A stretch of 64,000 nucleotides of DNA, taken from positions 806,001 through 870,000 of the forward strand of contig NZ_BJVC01000001.1 in the NCBI RefSeq assembly GCF_007988945.1, read 5' to 3'. This document shows, piece by piece, positions 45,436-56,055 of the stretch. The position numbers and the translations under genes were made by a program. Positions within the stretch are counted from its first letter, which is position 1; each line of letters opens with the position of its first letter. This DNA is from Swaminathania salitolerans. GTDB lineage: Bacteria; Pseudomonadota; Alphaproteobacteria; Acetobacterales; Acetobacteraceae. Below the pieces are notes generated by a model. The model made no database searches. It was not told the origin of the DNA and was given only the letters and a program-made list of their open reading frames with translations.

Positions 45436-45630
45436 GTCTCTCCCGAAGGACGGGACCGGACTGCGCGAGAGGGAGAGATCCCGGCGGGATGCGCCGGAGG
45501 CGGGAAGGGGGAAGGCGCCTTGCGGATTCCCCCCCCAGGTGTTTCTTCCTTAGCCTTTCGCCTGCGCTCCGGGCTGGCCGTGGGTGCCAGGGCGCCGGGT
45601 TCGAGGGGCGGATCAGGATGCCCGGTCGGG

Positions 45631-45656
45631 GCGTTCGATCAGGGCGTCCGATCAGG
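45631..45656. repeat. Two-unit 13-bp tandem repeat at the purN stop
   Basis: GCGTTCGATCAGG (45631-45643) and GCGTCCGATCAGG (45644-45656), differing at one base. The second unit includes the purN stop codon (TGA on the minus strand, 45652-45654). The preceding spacer (45436-45630) shows no gene. Confidence 0.7.
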
Positions 45657-46251
45657 GCGCGACGTCGTGCGGGTTCCGGTCGCGCAGGAAGGTCGCGAGA
45701 GCCTCCGGATAGAGACGGTGTTCCTCGGCGAGAACCCGCCCGGCAAGCGTTTCAGCTGTGTCGTCAGGGAGGATGTCCACCCTCGCCTGAGCGAGGACGG
45801 GGCCTTCATCGACACCGTCGGTGACGAGATGCACCGTGCATCCGTGATGGCTGTCGCCCGAAGCGAGGGCACGCGCATGCGTATCGAGGCCCGGATAGGC
45901 CGGAAGAAGGCTCGGATGGATATTGAGCATCCGCCCCGCCCAGCGCGACACCAGAAAAGGGGTGAGAACGCGCATGTAGCCCGCAAGACAGACGATCTCT
46001 GCGCCGGCCTGCTGCAGCGCGGCATCGACCGCCGCCTCATGTGCGGCACGGTCGCGCGCAAAGGGGCGATGATCGATTGCATGAACGGCCAGACCGGCAC
46101 GCCTTGCGGTTTCGAGGCCGGGCGCCTCGGGGTTGTTGCTCAGCACCAGGGCGATGCGCGCCGGATATCCGGGGTCGGCACAGGCCTCGATCAGCGCCTC
46201 CATGTTCGAGCCGCGCCCGCTGATGAGCACGGCAATCGGGGTCTTGCTCAT
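45652..46251 (-). CDS. purN: Phosphoribosylglycinamide formyltransferase
   Basis: A 199-residue GAR transformylase. It has [14 protein letters not shown] near residue 8, the active-site [18 protein letters not shown] (Asn and His) near residue 107, and [11 protein letters not shown] (Asp) near residue 139. It transfers formyl from 10-formyltetrahydrofolate to GAR in purine synthesis. Its ATG overlaps the purM stop (46248-46251), so the pair is coupled. The frame is open upstream in a shadow of purM; the ATG at 46251 gives the family start. Confidence 0.96.
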
Positions 46252-48287: not shown

Positions 48288-50585
48288 GTGGCGTCGTCTT
48301 CGAAACAGGATTCGGAAACAGGGGCGGTAAGCGCCACGAAGCCCACCCGTGCGCGGCGGCCCCGGTCGCCCCGCACGGCCAGAGCCATGACCCGGATCCC
48401 CGATCCCGGGATCGTGACCTCTCCGGCGCGCTTCATCAATCGTGAGCTGTCCTGGCTCGATTTCAACCAGCGTGTGATCGAAGAGGCCGAAAACCGCCGT
48501 CATCCCCTGCTCGAGCGCCTGCGTTTCCTGTCGATCAGCGCGAGCAATCTCGATGAATTCTATTCGGTGCGCGTTGCAGGTCTGGTCGGTCAGGTGCGCG
48601 AAGGGCTGGTGGCCCCTTCGGCCGACGGGCTGACGCCGGCCCAGCAGCTCGCCCGGGTCAGACGCAGCGCAGCGCGTCTTTTCGCTGCTCAGCAACGGAT
48701 ATGGCGCCTGTTGCGGGGCGAACTCTCCGAGGCGGGCATCCGCCTCTGCGCGACGGGCGATCTCGATGAAGCCGAACTGGCGCTCATGGCCCGCAAGTTC
48801 GAGGAAGAGATCTATCCGGTTCTGACACCGCTTGCGATCGACCCGTCCCATCCGATGCCCTTCATTCCCAATCTGGGTATGGCGCTCGCACTCAGGCTGC
48901 ACGATCCCGCCGTGCCGGGGTTTTCGATGGATGCGCTCATCCTGCTGCCGCAGCAGATCGATCGCTTCATCCGTCTGCCACAGCGTCAGAAGGACGAGTC
49001 CGATTCCCGCGGGCCCGTTCCTGCCCCCGAGGTCCGCTTCGTTCTTCTCGAGGATGTCATCCGGCAGAATATCGGCCGTCTGTTTCCCGGCATGGAAATC
49101 GCCGAAGGCGGGGTATTGCGCATCATCCGCGATTCGGATGTGGAGTTCGAGGATGAGGCGGAGGATCTCGTCCTCTCCTACGAGACCGCGCTCAAGCAGC
49201 GTCGGCGCGGGGTGGGGATCCATCTCGCACTCGACGCGACGATTCCCGAAAGCATGGGGCGCGAATTCGCCGCCGAACTCGATGTCGCACGGGACGACAT
49301 GGTGGTTCAGCCGGATATGATCGGCGTGGTCGATCTCAAGCAGATGATCGTGCCCGACAGGCCGGATCTGCTTTTCAAGCCCTACAAGCCGCGCTTTCCC
49401 GAACGGATCCGCGATTATGACGGCGATTGTTTTGCTGCGATCCGTGCCAAGGATATCGTGGTGCATCACCCGTTCGAGAGCTTCGACGTGGTGGTCCAGT
49501 TCCTCAAGCAGGCCGCGCTCGACCCGCAGGTCGTTGCCATCAAGCAGACGCTCTATCGCACCTCGCGCGACAGCCCGATCGTCCGGGCTCTGATCGAGGC
49601 CGCGGAACTCGGCAAGTCCGTGACCGCCATGGTCGAGCTGCGGGCCCGGTTCGACGAGGAGGCCAATATCCGCCTCGCCCGTACGCTCGAATCCGCCGGG
49701 GTACAGGTCGTGTTCGGGTTCACCCATCTCAAGACCCACGCCAAGCTGAGCCTGGTCGTGCGCAGGGAGGCGGGCGGATTGCGGTCCTATGCCCATTTCG
49801 GGACAGGAAATTACCATCCGATCACCGCGCGGATCTATACCGATCTCTCCTTCTTTACATGCGATCCCGGTCTTGCCGGAGATTCCGCAAAACTCTTCAA
49901 CTACATGACCGGCTATGCGACGCCCGTCGATATGGAGGCGCTGGCCTTCGCGCCCATCACCCTGCGCGAGACGCTCATGGAGCTGATCGAGCGCGAGATC
50001 GCTCACGCCACGGCCGGACGGCCTGCGCGGATCTGGCTCAAGATGAACAGCCTCGTGGATTCGTCGCTGATCGATGCGCTCTACCGGGCCTCACGCGCCG
50101 GGGTGAAGATCGTGGGAATCGTGCGCGGGATATGCTGCCTCAGACCGGGCGTGCCGGGTCTGTCCGACCATATCGAGATCCGCTCGATCGTCGGGCGTTT
50201 TCTCGAACATGCGCGGATTTTCGTGTTCGGAGACGGGCATCGCATGCCCTCGCACAAGGCAAAGGTCTTCATCTCTTCCGCCGACTGGATGGGGCGGAAC
50301 ATGGATCGGCGTGTCGAGGCCATGGTCCCGATCACCAATCCGACCGTCCATGCCCAGATACTGGGGCAGATCATGACCATGGATCTGCGCGACACGTTGC
50401 AGAGCTGGACTCTTTCTTCGCGCGGGGACTGGCACCGCGTTTCACCGGGCGCTAATCCTTTCTCCGCGCATGACTATTTCATGCATAACCCGTCGCTTTC
50501 CGGGCGCGGCTCGGCCGCGCGCGAGAAGCCGCAGGACAAGGATGCGGGGCGGCGTGAACGGCCGGACCGTCTCCGGGAAGAGTAG
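48288..50585 (+). CDS. ppk: Polyphosphate kinase 1
   Basis: A 765-residue PPK1. The N-terminal domain is [20 protein letters not shown] near residue 48, the central [14 protein letters not shown] and [11 protein letters not shown] near residues 415-455. The catalytic His region is [10 protein letters not shown] near residue 505 and the second phospholipase-D-like motif is [22 protein letters not shown] near residue 660. It makes polyphosphate reversibly from ATP. The start is a GTG with AGGGAA upstream; the first about 40 residues are Arg/Ser-rich and variable. It is followed by ppx 13 bases later. Confidence 0.97.
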
Positions 50586-50598
50586 GAAAGAGAGTGAA

Positions 50599-52089
50599 GT
50601 GACGCGGTCTGACGCTCCACAAGGCCATCATCGGGCCGCTATTGTCGATCTGGGCTCGAATTCTGTCCGGCTGGTCGTTTTCGAAGGGGTGACACGCAAT
50701 CCCATCCCCATCTTCAACGAGAAGGCGACGCTGCGCCTCGGCAGGGGGCTCGAACAGACGGGACGGCTGAACGAGGAGGGATTGCTTCTTGCTCAGGATG
50801 TCATGAGCCGGTTCAACACGATCGCCCGCGCCATGGACGCCCATCCTTTCGAGGTTCTCGCCACCGCCGCCGTGAGAGATGCGTCCAATGGCAGGGAGTT
50901 CGTCGAGACGCTCAATGCCTGCATGCCCGATGTGCCGATCCGTATCCTCTCTGGCGAGGAGGAGGCGGATTACGCTGCGACCGGCGTCCTGTGCGGACTT
51001 CCCGATGCCGATGGCGTCGTGGCTGATATCGGCGGCGGCTCTCTGGAACTGATCCGCGTTGCCGACGGGCGCCATCATGCCGCCTGCACGAGGCCGCTCG
51101 GGGTCATTCGCCTGTCCGACAGGGCCGGGGGCGATCTCAAGCGGGCACGGGAACTCGTCGAGGGAGATCTCGACGATGTCGCATGGCTTCCGGCATTGAA
51201 GGGAAAGCCCCTCTATCTCGTCGGCGGCGCCTTTCGGGCGCTCGCCCGGTTGCAGATCGCGCGCACGCATTATCCGCTCAATATCGTTCATCTCTATACG
51301 CTCGGCGCCGACGAGGCGCGCGAGATGGTCACGTGGCTCATCGATACGCCGCGCAAGACTCTCGAGAAAATTCCCGGCTTCCCGCGCAAGCGCCTCGATG
51401 ACGTGCCTTATGCCGCGACCGTTCTGCGTCGCCTCATGCGGATCGTTCAGCCTTCCCAGATCGTCTTCAGCGTGGATGGCGTGCGCGAAGGCTGGTACAT
51501 GCGCAAGGTCGGTCTCGATGTCGCATCCCAGGATCCATGCCGGGCGCTCGCGGATGAAGCCGCGGCGCGGCTCGGGCGCAGCCTGGACCTGCCGGAGGAT
51601 CTGATCCGCTGGACGGCCCCGCTTTTTCCTCATGAGACCCCTTCGGAGACGGATCTGCGGGACATGACCTGTCGCATGTCCGATATCGGTTCCTTCGATC
51701 ATCCGGAATATCGCGCGGCGCAGACCTATCTGCGCGTGATGAGGATGCACGGGGTCGGCTTCACCCATCGTGCCCGTGCCTTCGTGGCGCTCGCCCTTGC
51801 CGTGCGTTATGAGGCCGATCCGGCCGATGCGCTGATGGAAACGTCCCGCCGCCTGCTCCTGCCCGATGAATGCGAGCGGGCCGTGCAGCTCGGTTTTGCC
51901 CTGAGGCTCGCCTATACGATCTGCGGGGGCACATCGGCGCTTCTCAAGGATACCACGCTCTCGATAGAGGATGGAATCCTCGGTCTGTCCCAGGAAGGTC
52001 CCGGCACCTTCACGACGACGGGCAGTGTCAGGCGTCGTCTCGAAAGACTGGCCCAGAGCCTCTCTCTTGCTGCCGAACCCGCATCATGA
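50599..52089 (+). CDS. ppx: Exopolyphosphatase (Ppx/GppA family)
   Basis: A 496-residue Ppx/GppA phosphatase. The actin-like ATPase-fold motifs are AIVDLGSNSVRLVVFEG near residue 15, LSGEEEADYAATG (catalytic Glu region) near residue 117 and VADIGGGSLEL near residue 141. A helical HD-like C-terminal domain fills residues about 310-496. It releases phosphate from polyphosphate or pppGpp. The GTG at 50599, with AGGAAAGAGAG upstream, is preferred because the longer frame overlaps the ppk end. It pairs with ppk, and its stop overlaps the start of the cdh gene. Confidence 0.95.
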   Translation: MTRSDAPQGHHRAAIVDLGSNSVRLVVFEGVTRNPIPIFNEKATLRLGRGLEQTGRLNEEGLLLAQDVMSRFNTIARAMDAHPFEVLATAAVRDASNGREFVETLNACMPDVPIRILSGEEEADYAATGVLCGLPDADGVVADIGGGSLELIRVADGRHHAACTRPLGVIRLSDRAGGDLKRARELVEGDLDDVAWLPALKGKPLYLVGGAFRALARLQIARTHYPLNIVHLYTLGADEAREMVTWLIDTPRKTLEKIPGFPRKRLDDVPYAATVLRRLMRIVQPSQIVFSVDGVREGWYMRKVGLDVASQDPCRALADEAAARLGRSLDLPEDLIRWTAPLFPHETPSETDLRDMTCRMSDIGSFDHPEYRAAQTYLRVMRMHGVGFTHRARAFVALALAVRYEADPADALMETSRRLLLPDECERAVQLGFALRLAYTICGGTSALLKDTTLSIEDGILGLSQEGPGTFTTTGSVRRRLERLAQSLSLAAEPAS

Positions 52090-52899
52090 GAGCGATCCGG
52101 CCCTCGGGGTCGGGTGCGATATCGCGGGTCGGCGCGGGCGTCCGTCCGGGCGTCCGTCTGGGCATCTATCTGGGTGTCGGTCTGGGCTTTCTGTGCCCGG
52201 CCGTGTCGTCCTTGGCAGGTGCTGCGGTCACGCCACCGGGGAAGGTGCACAGGCACGATCCCGATGCCCTGTGGCACATTGTCGGCGAGGGCTGCGCAAA
52301 ATCCGGCAGTCCCTGTGCGGTCTACGATCCGGCACGGGGGTTTCGCCCTTCTGCACAGCGTGGAAGGGCGCGGCCAGTATCTTCTGATCCCGACGGTCCG
52401 GCGTGCCGGAATGGAGAGTGCCGCGCTTCTCCTGCCGGAAACGCCGAATTATTTCGCTCTGGCCTGGGCCTATCGCGCGCGTGTCGGCCACGATTACGGT
52501 CGTTTCATCGATCCGCGCATGCTCTCGCTCGCCATCAATTCGGTCGGCGGGCGCTCGCAGAACCAGCTTCATATCCATCTCGATTGTCTCGATCCGGCGA
52601 TTCGCGACGCGCTCGATCGCGCCGCGGACCGGATCGGACCGCGCTGGCGCGTTCTGACAGAGACATTGCACGGGCATCGTTACCGCGCCATGTATCTCGC
52701 CACGCTGAACGGATCGCCCTTCCGGATCCTTGCCGCCGATATGGCACATCCAGAGAGCGAGATGGGCGCACACACGCTGGTTCTCGCGCCGCTCGGCGCG
52801 GGATACGTGCTTCTGGACGATGTCGCGAAAGACGGAGACCGTGCGTCGGGAGAAGAGTTGCAGGATCACACCTGCCGCGTTCTGACCGACGCGCCCTGA
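52086..52899 (+). pseudogene. cdh: CDP-diacylglycerol pyrophosphatase, frameshifted
   Basis: Two frames together make one Cdh protein. Frame one starts at ATG 52086 (overlapping the ppx stop), with a signal-peptide-like hydrophobic leader and then DALWHIVGEGCAKSGSPCAVYDPARGF. After the G5 run at 52336-52340 the homology moves to the other frame: ALLHSVEGRGQYLLIPT, SLAINSVGGRSQNQLHIHLDCL (HIT-like His-x-His) and SEMGAHTLVLAPL, ending at 52899. One G fewer in the run would join them. Cdh cleaves CDP-diacylglycerol to phosphatidate and CMP in the envelope. It is either a true inactivated gene, a slippage-prone allele, or a sequencing error. The leader is built from a 12-bp tandem repeat. Confidence 0.82.
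52136..52183. repeat. Four-unit 12-bp tandem repeat in the cdh leader
   Basis: GGGCGTCCGTCC (52136-52147), GGGCGTCCGTCT (52148-52159), GGGCATCTATCT (52160-52171), GGGTGTCGGTCT (52172-52183). In the cdh frame it encodes the four-residue periods GVRP-GVRL-GIYL-GVGL, which form part of the signal peptide. Confidence 0.85.
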
Positions 52900-52978
52900 T
52901 CAGCGCGCCCTGACCGATCTGTCCTGACCGATCTGCCCCGGCCGATCTGCCCCGGCCGATCCGCCCTGACCGGCATGT
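52881..52978. repeat. Seven-unit 14-bp tandem array over the cdh stop codon
   Basis: Seven consecutive 14-bp units: TCTGACCGACGCGC (52881), CCTGATCAGCGCGC (52895), CCTGACCGATCTGT (52909), CCTGACCGATCTGC (52923), CCCGGCCGATCTGC (52937), CCCGGCCGATCCGC (52951), CCTGACCGGCATGT (52965-52978). The first unit is in the last codons of cdh and the second contains part of the stop. The period is not a multiple of three. The array fills most of the spacer to the convergent NCS1 gene. Confidence 0.9.
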
Positions 52979-53024
52979 CTGTCGCTCATCCCGCTCCGGA
53001 CCGACGACCGCCGCGGGTTGCCCG

Positions 53025-54428
53025 TCAGCGCGTGCGTTGCGGCCAGGCCAGAGCGAGATAGAGAACGCCGCTGACTCCGAGACCGACGAACCATGAGATC
53101 TGGTTCAGCGCAGACAGGGCAGGGAACACGCTGCCGCTGATCGCGCAGAGTCCGCCCAGGACGAAGCTGATCAGGGCAGGAACGCCCCAGCCCCGTTTTC
53201 CCTCGTAGCGTCCGTCATGACGATAGAGCTCGGAAACGGCGAGTTTCTCCCGGCGGAGCACGAAGTAATCGGCAAGCATGATGCCCGTCACCGGTCCGAG
53301 CAATCCGCTGACGATATCCAGTATGTGGAAGATGCTCCCGGCTTCGCTGAACCAGAGCCAGGGCATGAAGGCGACGCCGAGAATGAGCACCAGATAGCTC
53401 GATCTGTGAAAATTCAGCGTGCGCGGCAGCACGTTGATGAGATCGTAGCAGGCGGGCATGATATTCGCCACGACATTGACCGAGAGCGTGGCGAGCACGA
53501 TGACCGCGCCGCCCGCAACGGTCACGACCGGATGACCCAGAGCCAGAAGCAGATCGACCGGGTTCCAGATGGGATGGCCGAAGAGGAGCACGGTCGCTGA
53601 AGTCGTGATGATGGCCATGGGCGTGAAGATGAGGGCCGTAAGGGGAAGGCCGATGGCCTGGCCGATGGCCTGATCGCGCTGCGAGCGGACGAATCGCGAA
53701 AGATCCGGAATATTGACGGCGAAGGTTGCCCACATGCCGATCATGCCGGTCACCCCGCCGGCGAAGGCCGTGACGAAGGCCCAGCCATGGAGGGTGGAAG
53801 GTGTGGAAAAGAGCGGGCCCAGCCCGTGTCCGACCTTGAGCGCCCATCCCGTTGCGCAGGCGCCGACGATTATGACAAGAGGACCCGCCACGAGCTCGAA
53901 ATTGCCGATACGCTCGATACCGTGATTCATCACCCAGCCATGAAGAAGCCAGACGAGCGCGAGCGCTCCCCAGCGATGGAGGCTCATGCCCAGAACCGGC
54001 GTGGAGAAGGCGTTCCATCCGGGCCATACCGTACCGAGAATGGCGTCGATGGCCTGGGTCGCGGCATAGGCCTGCACCGAAAACCAGAAAATCGCGCAGA
54101 ATCCGCGCAGGAGCACGGGCACCTGGGCGCCGCGCGTCCCGAACGAGGCGCGGATGAGAACGCAGAACGGAATGCCGTAGCGCGTTCCGGCCCGGGCGTT
54201 GAACCACATCGTCACGAACAGGATGGCATAGGCCACGGCGACGATCTCGAGACATTCCATGGCCGAGAAGCCGAGGGCCATGAGACCGGCGGCGGCTTCG
54301 TAGACGACGATGTTATGAACCATCCCCATCCAGATCGTCGCCATGTTGATCCAGCCCCATTGGCGCTGGTCCGGGGGAATGGGGGCGAGATCCTCGTTAT
54401 AGAGGCTGGGATCGAAAGTCTCGTTCAT
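53025..54428 (-). CDS. NCS1 family nucleobase/allantoin permease
   Basis: A 467-residue NCS1 transporter with about twelve membrane segments. It follows the PucI allantoin permease pattern by eye: YNEDLAPIPPDQRQWGW at the start, NMATIWMGMVHNI, GTRYGIPFCVLIRASFG near residue 98, GMWATFAVNIPDLSRFVRSQ near residue 230 and LSVNVVANIMPACYDLIN near residue 318. Substrates of close families are allantoin, uracil or hydantoins. The ATG at 54428 gives the family start; the 54473 extension does not. Its location near a RutR-like regulator and ureide genes supports import of an N-rich base or ureide. Confidence 0.9.
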   Translation of the reverse strand: MNETFDPSLYNEDLAPIPPDQRQWGWINMATIWMGMVHNIVVYEAAAGLMALGFSAMECLEIVAVAYAILFVTMWFNARAGTRYGIPFCVLIRASFGTRGAQVPVLLRGFCAIFWFSVQAYAATQAIDAILGTVWPGWNAFSTPVLGMSLHRWGALALVWLLHGWVMNHGIERIGNFELVAGPLVIIVGACATGWALKVGHGLGPLFSTPSTLHGWAFVTAFAGGVTGMIGMWATFAVNIPDLSRFVRSQRDQAIGQAIGLPLTALIFTPMAIITTSATVLLFGHPIWNPVDLLLALGHPVVTVAGGAVIVLATLSVNVVANIMPACYDLINVLPRTLNFHRSSYLVLILGVAFMPWLWFSEAGSIFHILDIVSGLLGPVTGIMLADYFVLRREKLAVSELYRHDGRYEGKRGWGVPALISFVLGGLCAISGSVFPALSALNQISWFVGLGVSGVLYLALAWPQRTR

Positions 54429-54735
54429 GGCGATCGGCAGCCTGACACGGGACGAAGGCGAGGGGAACCCCACACATTTCCGATACGGAACAATCCGGTC
54501 CTGTCACGCCGGAAGGTCGTTCCGGCGTCGCGATCAGGCTGCGTTGCCGGAATCCGCCGGCAGGGCTGCGGATGAGGCCGCCGCTTTCATTGCCGTCTCC
54601 GCCGCCGTCTCTGCGCCGACCCGGCCGCCGCCTTCGCCAACGTCGATCCTGTCGGCCGGCCCCGAGCGGGCGACTCCGGTTCGCACGGTCTCGCCGGGCG
54701 CCCGTCGGCAGGTGGCAGGTGCCCGTCGGCAGATC
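54429..54735. other. Intergenic region with repeats between NCS1 and transaminase
   Basis: About 307 bases without a supported gene. It is rich in CCGCCG/CCGTCTC clusters (54595-54640) and carries GCCCGTCGGCAG twice with a 21-base period (54700-54711 and 54721-54732). The second copy abuts the transaminase stop codon. No terminator was found. Confidence 0.5.
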
Positions 54736-56055
54736 TCAGTCCAGGCTGCGCAGGATCGTCCCGATGGTTTCGAAAATCCTGTCGATCTCGGCTTTCTCGA
54801 TGATCAGGGGAGGAGAAACCGCGATGATGTCGCCGGTGTAGCGCAGAAGCACACCTGCGTGGAACGCGCGCTCGAACACCTCATAGGCCCGGGTGGTGCT
54901 GGCCGCGCGCGGCGCCAGCTCGATCCCTGCCACGAGTCCCTCATTGCGTATGTCGATCACATGGGGCGCATCCCGGAGGGAATGGGCGGCCTCTTCGAAA
55001 TAGGGAGAGAGTGCAGCCGCCCGTTCGAACAGATGCTCCTCGGCATAGGTGTCGAGCGTTGCGATGGCGGCGGCGCAGGCAACGGGATGGGCGGTGTAGG
55101 TGTAGCCATGAGGCAGATCGATCGCCTCGCGCGGCCCCTGCATGAACGCGTCGAAGACCTCATCCGACACGATATTGGCGCCCATGGGAATCGTGCCGTT
55201 GGTTACTCCCTTCGCGATTGTCATGATGTCGGGCACGACGCCGTATTTCTCCGAGGCGAACGAGGCACCGAGACGGCCGAACCCGGTAATGACCTCATCG
55301 AAGATAAGGAGAATGCCGTGGCGGGTGCAGATCTCGCGCAGACGCTTGAGATAGCCTTTCGGCGCGGGGAGAACGCCGGTCGAACCGGCCATGGGCTCGA
55401 CGATGACGGCGGCAATCGTCGAGGCGTCATGCAGCGCGACGATACGCTCCAGCGCATCCGCCAGTTCGGCGCCGTGTTCGGGGAGCCCGCGCGAGAAGGC
55501 GTTGCGTCGGAGATCGAGGGTATGCGGCAGGTGATCGACGCCATTGAGCATCGATCCGTACAATTTGCGATTGCCGGAAATCCCGCCGACCGAGATCCCG
55601 CCGAAGCCCACGCCGTGATAACCGCGTTCACGTCCGATCAGGCGGGTACGTGCCCCCTCGCCACGGAGCCGATGATAGGCGAGCGCGATCTTGAGTGCCG
55701 TATCGCCCGCCTCGGAGCCGGAATTGCAGAAGAAGACGTGATTGAGTGGGTTCGGGGCGAGACGTGCGATCCGGTCGGCGGCTTCGAAGGCGAGGGGGTG
55801 ACCCATCTGGAAGGCCGGGGCGAAATCCAGGGTCGCAACCGTCTTCTGAACTGCCTCGACGATTCTGGGGCGCGCATGACCCGCATTGACGCACCAGAGC
55901 CCGGCGCAGCCATCGAGAACCTCATTTCCCTTGTCGTCCCGGTAATACATGCCCTTGGCGGAGACGAGCATGCGCGGCGCATCGCGAAACTGGCGATTGG
56001 CCGTGAAGGGGAGCCAGAGCGCGTCGTGATTGCTGTCGGGGGTCGGATGGCTCAT
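54736..56055 (-). CDS. Class III omega-amino acid--pyruvate aminotransferase
   Basis: A 439-residue fold-type I PLP enzyme. It has LWLPFTANRQFRDAPRML near the start, CNSGSEAGDTALKIA near residue 110, the GYHG motif, LIFDEVITGFGRLG (PLP Asp) near residue 250, and the PLP lysine in IMTIAKGVTNG near residue 282. The sequence style fits beta-alanine/omega-amino acid:pyruvate transaminase, though GABA or other amines are possible. Beta-alanine is a product of pyrimidine breakdown, consistent with the neighbouring NCS1 permease and RutR-like regulator. It is divergent from the MFS gene. Confidence 0.92.
   Translation of the reverse strand: MSHPTPDSNHDALWLPFTANRQFRDAPRMLVSAKGMYYRDDKGNEVLDGCAGLWCVNAGHARPRIVEAVQKTVATLDFAPAFQMGHPLAFEAADRIARLAPNPLNHVFFCNSGSEAGDTALKIALAYHRLRGEGARTRLIGRERGYHGVGFGGISVGGISGNRKLYGSMLNGVDHLPHTLDLRRNAFSRGLPEHGAELADALERIVALHDASTIAAVIVEPMAGSTGVLPAPKGYLKRLREICTRHGILLIFDEVITGFGRLGASFASEKYGVVPDIMTIAKGVTNGTIPMGANIVSDEVFDAFMQGPREAIDLPHGYTYTAHPVACAAAIATLDTYAEEHLFERAAALSPYFEEAAHSLRDAPHVIDIRNEGLVAGIELAPRAASTTRAYEVFERAFHAGVLLRYTGDIIAVSPPLIIEKAEIDRIFETIGTILRSLD

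What the first reader, a model, noticed from the sequence alone, without database searches (positions are those of the whole stretch)
52881..52978. Seven-unit 14-bp array crossing the cdh stop codon
The longest array in the window starts in the last codons of cdh and fills the spacer to the convergent NCS1 gene. Adjacent units are the most alike (units 3/4, 4/5, 5/6 differ by one to three bases), as expected for stepwise duplication. Copy number change would alter the cdh C-terminus or the 3' ends of both transcripts.
Basis: seen in the sequence. Interest (0 to 1): 0.5.

Follow-up and report, generated by a model that had tools for sequence, protein, structure and literature searches.

The report
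Slippage-grown 14-base repeat between two genes
A real run of seven imperfect 14-base copies sits between two facing genes of an acetic acid bacterium; by itself it looks like ordinary DNA stutter, but the sampled parts of this genome hold several times more such short arrays than those of its sister genus.

Summary
The array is real: seven 14-bp units at 52882-52979, 63 of 84 lag-14 matches against at most 42 in 20 simulations. Stepwise duplication is supported: units 3-6 are the most alike, and 15 of 15 related cdh ends lack the array. The array does not fill the spacer; 45 bp remain before the NCS1 stop. And 13 of 14 single-unit deletions or duplications leave the Cdh tail unchanged, because units starting CTGA re-supply the stop. 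cdh, single copy here, is itself split by a frameshift upstream, unlike in 9 of 9 relatives searched. In three relatives the two genes overlap at their 3' ends; here they are 125 bp apart. The array is one of many: 85 in 520 kb sampled from this genome (very probably Swaminathania salitolerans), 27 of them with three or more copies, against 14 and 0 in 440 kb of the Asaia genus and 13 and 1 in 640 kb of other near relatives. Against uniqueness, wider-family stretches are at least as dense (63 in 303 kb). Best reading: a neutral slippage minisatellite in a repeat-rich lineage. Cause unknown; copy-number variability untested.

The parts
52882..52979 (.). Seven imperfect tandem units of 14 bp; 5 of 7 start CTGA, units 5 and 6 start CCGG
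52980..53024 (.). 45-bp non-repeated remainder of the spacer up to the NCS1 stop
   Evidence: best unit-like site at chance level
52086..52340 (+). Amino-terminal part of cdh in its own frame (ATG overlaps the end of ppx); it carries the HDPDALW..CAVYD part seen in relatives; end of the frame part approximate
52339..52899 (+). Carboxy-terminal part of cdh (PF02611) in a different frame; ends inside the array (stop at 52897-52899)
53025..54473 (-). Convergent NCS1-type permease gene (PF02133)

Best explanation
A minisatellite-like array that grew by repeated replication slippage in the 3' spacer of two convergent genes, in a lineage whose genome is rich in such short arrays. Shown: the array is real, units 3-6 are most alike to their neighbours, it is absent behind cdh in the relatives examined, and the sampled genome holds several times more short arrays than its sister genus. 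Inferred: growth by slippage of a 14-bp unit, perhaps helped by a hairpin-prone core on the minus strand. Inferred: it was tolerated because it is almost wholly untranslated, leaves the NCS1 stop alone, and ends cdh translation again at units starting CTGA. No regulatory role is needed.
For: Unit identities and simulations. No array behind cdh in 15 of 15 related loci. 13 of 14 single-unit changes leave Cdh unchanged. TRF arrays: own 85 in 520 kb (27 with three or more copies and a unit of at least 7 bp), Asaia genus 14 in 440 kb (0), 14 other near genomes 13 in 640 kb (1). Own 58 in 400 kb against means of 5.0 and 2.6 in order-3 and order-5 Markov simulations, while G021 and G024 are at expectation. 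By a rough gene caller, 30 of 36 coding arrays have a period divisible by three, as expected of random duplications filtered by selection; 26 of 66 arrays are intergenic against 7.2 expected. Unit sequences differ between arrays, and the locus has one match in the genome, so it is not a dispersed element.
Against: No second strain was available, so present instability is not shown. Units 2/3 and 6/7 share only 7 of 14 bases, so the ends of the array are old or arose otherwise. The minus strand folds better than 199 of 200 shuffles, which leaves a structural role open. Conserved genes show no insertion excess (23 own insertions, 20 own deletions in 78 alignments) and only 2 of 7 arrays inside aligned orthologues are insertions relative to the reference. 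Stretches of the wider family are at least as dense (63 in 303 kb).
Confidence: 0.82

Rival explanations
1. The array is a 3'-end element of the NCS1 transcript: neighbouring units pair on the minus strand into a row of hairpins that stop or stabilise the mRNA end and insulate it from cdh.
For: Minus strand of 52870-53030: z = -2.9, 1 of 200 shuffles folds as well; array alone z = -4.4 (60 shuffles), second lowest of 66 arrays.
Against: No terminator-like site on either strand and no Rfam family at gathering score; plus strand z = -0.45; relatives have NCS1 without any array; 19 of 66 arrays of this genome have z below -2 on one strand, so folding is not special to this one.
Confidence: 0.1
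2. The array is debris of a decaying locus: cdh has lost its frame, so its end is free to collect repeats.
For: cdh is single copy and its in-frame match covers profile positions 17-223 only, against a start at position 1 in 9 of 9 relatives; a second array (52136-52187) lies in its amino-terminal part.
Against: Arrays are common elsewhere in this genome, also inside long open frames; the frameshift may be a sequencing error; the array is mostly behind the stop and would be tolerated with an intact cdh too.
Confidence: 0.06
3. Phase variation: unit gain or loss switches the Cdh C-terminus.
For: The unit length, 14, is not a multiple of three, and the array starts before the stop codon.
Against: 13 of 14 single-unit changes give the same tail and the 14th two substitutions; cdh is frameshifted upstream in this assembly.
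Confidence: 0.02

Closest known systems
Bacterial minisatellites / VNTR loci as used in strain typing (MLVA; papers seen as search listings only)
   Same: Tandem imperfect units of 10-60 bp, neighbours alike, here mostly between genes
   Different: Variation between strains, which makes a locus a VNTR, is not tested here
Hyper-mutable tandem repeats of Acetobacter pasteurianus (Azuma et al. 2009, not held; known from passages of PMC4686929)
   Same: Tandem repeats in a genome of the same family, linked there to instability
Intrinsic terminators between convergent genes
   Same: Place between two 3' ends; hairpins predicted on one strand
   Different: No terminator-like site with a T tract on either strand

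Membership tests
Minisatellite (tandem array, unit about 10-60 bp) | Several head-to-tail copies of a unit of that size, beyond chance | tested here: met
   Seven 14-bp units; 63 of 84 against at most 42 simulated
VNTR locus | Copy number differs between strains | not testable with these tools
   One genome of the genus held
Phase-variable coding repeat | Unit gain or loss changes the protein | tested here: not met
   13 of 14 single-unit changes leave the Cdh tail identical, one changes two residues
Intrinsic terminator | G+C-rich stem followed by a run of T | tested here: not met
   0 sites in 52700-53200, both strands
Dispersed repeat element (REP/BIME type) | Many copies in the genome | tested here: not met
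   One match of 52820-53040 in the own genome at E <= 0.001
Known structured RNA | Match to an Rfam family | tested here: not met
   0 matches at gathering score in 52000-54800

The most novel reading that the evidence does not exclude
After the split from Asaia, the Swaminathania lineage acquired a raised rate (or tolerance) of short tandem duplication, units of about 7-40 bp, kept in frame inside genes and of any length between genes. It is not explained by loss of MutS, MutL, RecJ, ExoVII large subunit or the PolA 5' nuclease domain. Arrays like this one are its traces, and can hold apart gene ends that overlap in other genera.
Probability: 0.4. Interest if true: 0.55.

Novelty: new member of a known kind. 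Interest (0 to 1): 0.3.

Why it matters
Taken alone the array is ordinary. Its setting is more useful: two sister genera that differ about fivefold in short tandem arrays (27 against 0 in the samples for arrays of three or more copies) would let one ask directly, by mutation accumulation and gene comparison, what sets the short tandem-duplication rate of a bacterium.

Tried and rejected
Terminator or known RNA: no site, no Rfam match at gathering score. Dispersed element: one match. Shared motif among arrays: CGGTCA is in 4 of 66 arrays against 2.6 expected; CCCGG-type words are modestly enriched, without correction for multiple testing. Degenerate units in the 45-bp remainder: chance level. 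Loss of a repair gene: the PolA 5' nuclease domain, MutS, MutL, RecJ and XseA are present with open frames in the own genome; catalytic residues were not checked. The SbcD model is under its cut-off in 8 of 8 genomes, so this test shows nothing specific to this lineage. RecG, RadA, DnaQ, SSB, RNase H and others were not tested.

Corrections on the way. After the genome looked unique; one search showed wider-family stretches at least as dense, so the claim was narrowed to near relatives. One search used a wrong frame for the amino-terminal part of cdh; one search corrected it. In one search the five minus-strand cdh loci (L109, L110, L112, L113, L114) were read in the wrong orientation; one search read all nine properly. 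The gene caller was home-made and missed ppx (50470-52089), so its intergenic count is approximate. The one-frame check ignored matches under 55% identity and therefore did not flag cdh itself; it is a weak check of assembly quality. Stretches were not all random: those were placed round known genes or at contig starts, and those at contig starts; two of the latter (L071, L072) read wholly N and were left in the 303-kb total.

Literature: searches were read as listings; passages were read of PMC4686929 and PMC11493185. No listing showed an account of tandem-array density in Swaminathania, in this library only.

Full report
Observation. Seven 14-bp units lie at 52882-52979. Lag-14 identity is 63 of 84, against at most 42 in 20 Markov simulations at that lag and 45 at any lag of 5-60. 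Units 3/4, 4/5 and 5/6 differ by 1, 2 and 1 bases; units 2/3 and 6/7 share only 7 of 14. TRF gives it the highest score of the window's 17 rows. 45 bp remain before the NCS1 stop at 53025.

Genes. The upstream gene is cdh (PF02611, over the cut-off; NCBIfam CDP-diacylglycerol diphosphatase models match under their cut-offs) and the convergent one an NCS1-type permease (PF02133 over the cut-off; NCBIfam models under theirs). ppx (PF02541) lies upstream. In this assembly cdh runs in two frames that meet near 52340, at a tract of five G and three T. One cdh is found in the genome; its match covers profile positions 17-223, while in 9 of 9 relatives searched the match starts at position 1. Whether the shift is a mutation or a sequencing error is open. 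Of 78 Asaia-protein hits to own stretches 77 lay in one frame, but that check did not flag cdh, so it is weak.

Effect of copy number. Five of seven units start CTGA, and a unit read in the cdh frame ends at the TGA of a following CTGA unit. In 13 of 14 single-unit deletions or duplications the Cdh tail is identical; deletion of unit 1 changes two residues; deletion of the whole array would extend the tail. The claim that copy-number change would alter the C-terminus is therefore wrong for nearly all single-unit changes, and NCS1 is not touched.

Relatives. In 6 relatives with cdh and NCS1 facing each other, the distance between the stops is -19 bp (G021), -40 (G024), -55 (Acidomonas), 25 (Gluconacetobacter diazotrophicus), 42 (G. 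sacchari) and 776 (Ameyamaea); here it is 125. Behind cdh no array like this one is found in these 6 or in 9 loci of the Asaia genus: best lag matches 20-25 of 42 against 38 here. TRF at score 40 or more lists only three two-copy repeats and one of 2.8 copies within 800 bp, one of them a 15-bp, score-46 repeat at the cdh stop of G. diazotrophicus. In three stretches of the Asaia genus NCS1 has no match between cdh and the aminotransferase gene. Which spacing is ancestral is not settled.

Identity. The genome has 2,924,745 bases in 9 contigs and 63.1% G+C in the window. Nearest by polyphosphate kinase among 249 family genomes are four of genus g109, at 89% identity. Passages of PMC11493185 give Swaminathania salitolerans 2,927,457 bp, 9 contigs, 62.85% G+C; Asaia bogorensis 3,198,265 bp, exactly the contig of G172; Kozakia baliensis 3,505,604 bp in 7 contigs, like G021. 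The names are inferred from these figures; the own size differs by 2.7 kb.

Genome-wide setting. With the same TRF settings (score 50 or more): own genome outside the window, 26 stretches, 85 arrays in 520 kb; Asaia genus, 22 stretches of 5 genomes, 14 in 440 kb; 14 other near genomes, 32 stretches, 13 in 640 kb. Arrays with three or more copies and a unit of at least 7 bp: 27, 0 and 1. The own excess holds at scores 40, 60 and 80. A further 13 named loci gave 7 in 156 kb, none with three or more copies. Composition does not explain the own excess: 58 in 400 kb against simulated means of 5.0 and 2.6. Against uniqueness: 20 stretches of other family members gave 63 in 303 kb, 9 with three or more copies; most of these are G+C-rich, but G029 (58% G+C, 3 in 20 kb) and G012 (47%, 4 in 20 kb) are not. 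So the genome stands out among near relatives, not in the whole family. The binomial figures (4e-11, 9e-8) treat arrays as independent.

Nature of the arrays. Unit sequences differ. Of 66 arrays (58 sampled plus 8 of the window), a rough gene caller puts 36 in genes (30 with a period divisible by three), 26 between genes (12 divisible, 14 not) and 4 on edges; random placing gives 55.3, 7.2 and 3.5. Of 93 arrays, 7 lie inside an aligned orthologue and 2 of these, the two highest-scoring, are insertions relative to the single reference used; gap counts in 78 alignments are 23 to 20. Five repair functions searched are present with open frames; SbcD is inconclusive. The cause is open.

Structure. 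The minus strand folds into hairpins between neighbouring units (z = -2.9, 1 of 200 shuffles as good); the plus strand does not (z = -0.45). No terminator-like site and no Rfam family. 19 of 66 arrays have z below -2 on one strand. Hairpins may favour slippage; a role at the NCS1 3' end is possible but has no support from relatives.

Verdict. An ordinary slippage-type minisatellite, correctly spotted, with a partly wrong consequence drawn from it; its worth is as a pointer to a lineage rich in short tandem arrays.

Noticed in passing
window 52330-52345: cdh is split over two frames at a G5T3 tract; relatives have it in one frame. Mutation or sequencing error is undecided.
   Followed up: partly
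window 52136-52187: A second array in the same gene, 12 bp x 4.3, in the hydrophobic amino-terminal part of cdh; the own amino-terminus is longer than those of the Asaia-genus proteins printed.
   Followed up: partly
window 45611-45659 and 54592-54638: Further short arrays of 13 bp x 3.8 and 12 bp x 4.0 near gene edges or in spacers.
   Followed up: no
L031:8207-8263: A perfect 9-bp unit repeated 6.3 times that inserts a Gly-Asp-Arg run into a protein conserved in the Kozakia-like genome.
   Followed up: partly
L126, L137, L139: In three stretches of the Asaia genus the NCS1 gene is missing between cdh and the aminotransferase gene, though it lies there in G021 and G024.
   Followed up: partly
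L124:7168-7219: A perfect 6-bp repeat, CGGTCA x 8.7, in the genome inferred to be Asaia bogorensis.
   Followed up: no
G021:C2:42618-44990: A second mutS-like match with one internal stop on another contig of the Kozakia-like genome.
   Followed up: no
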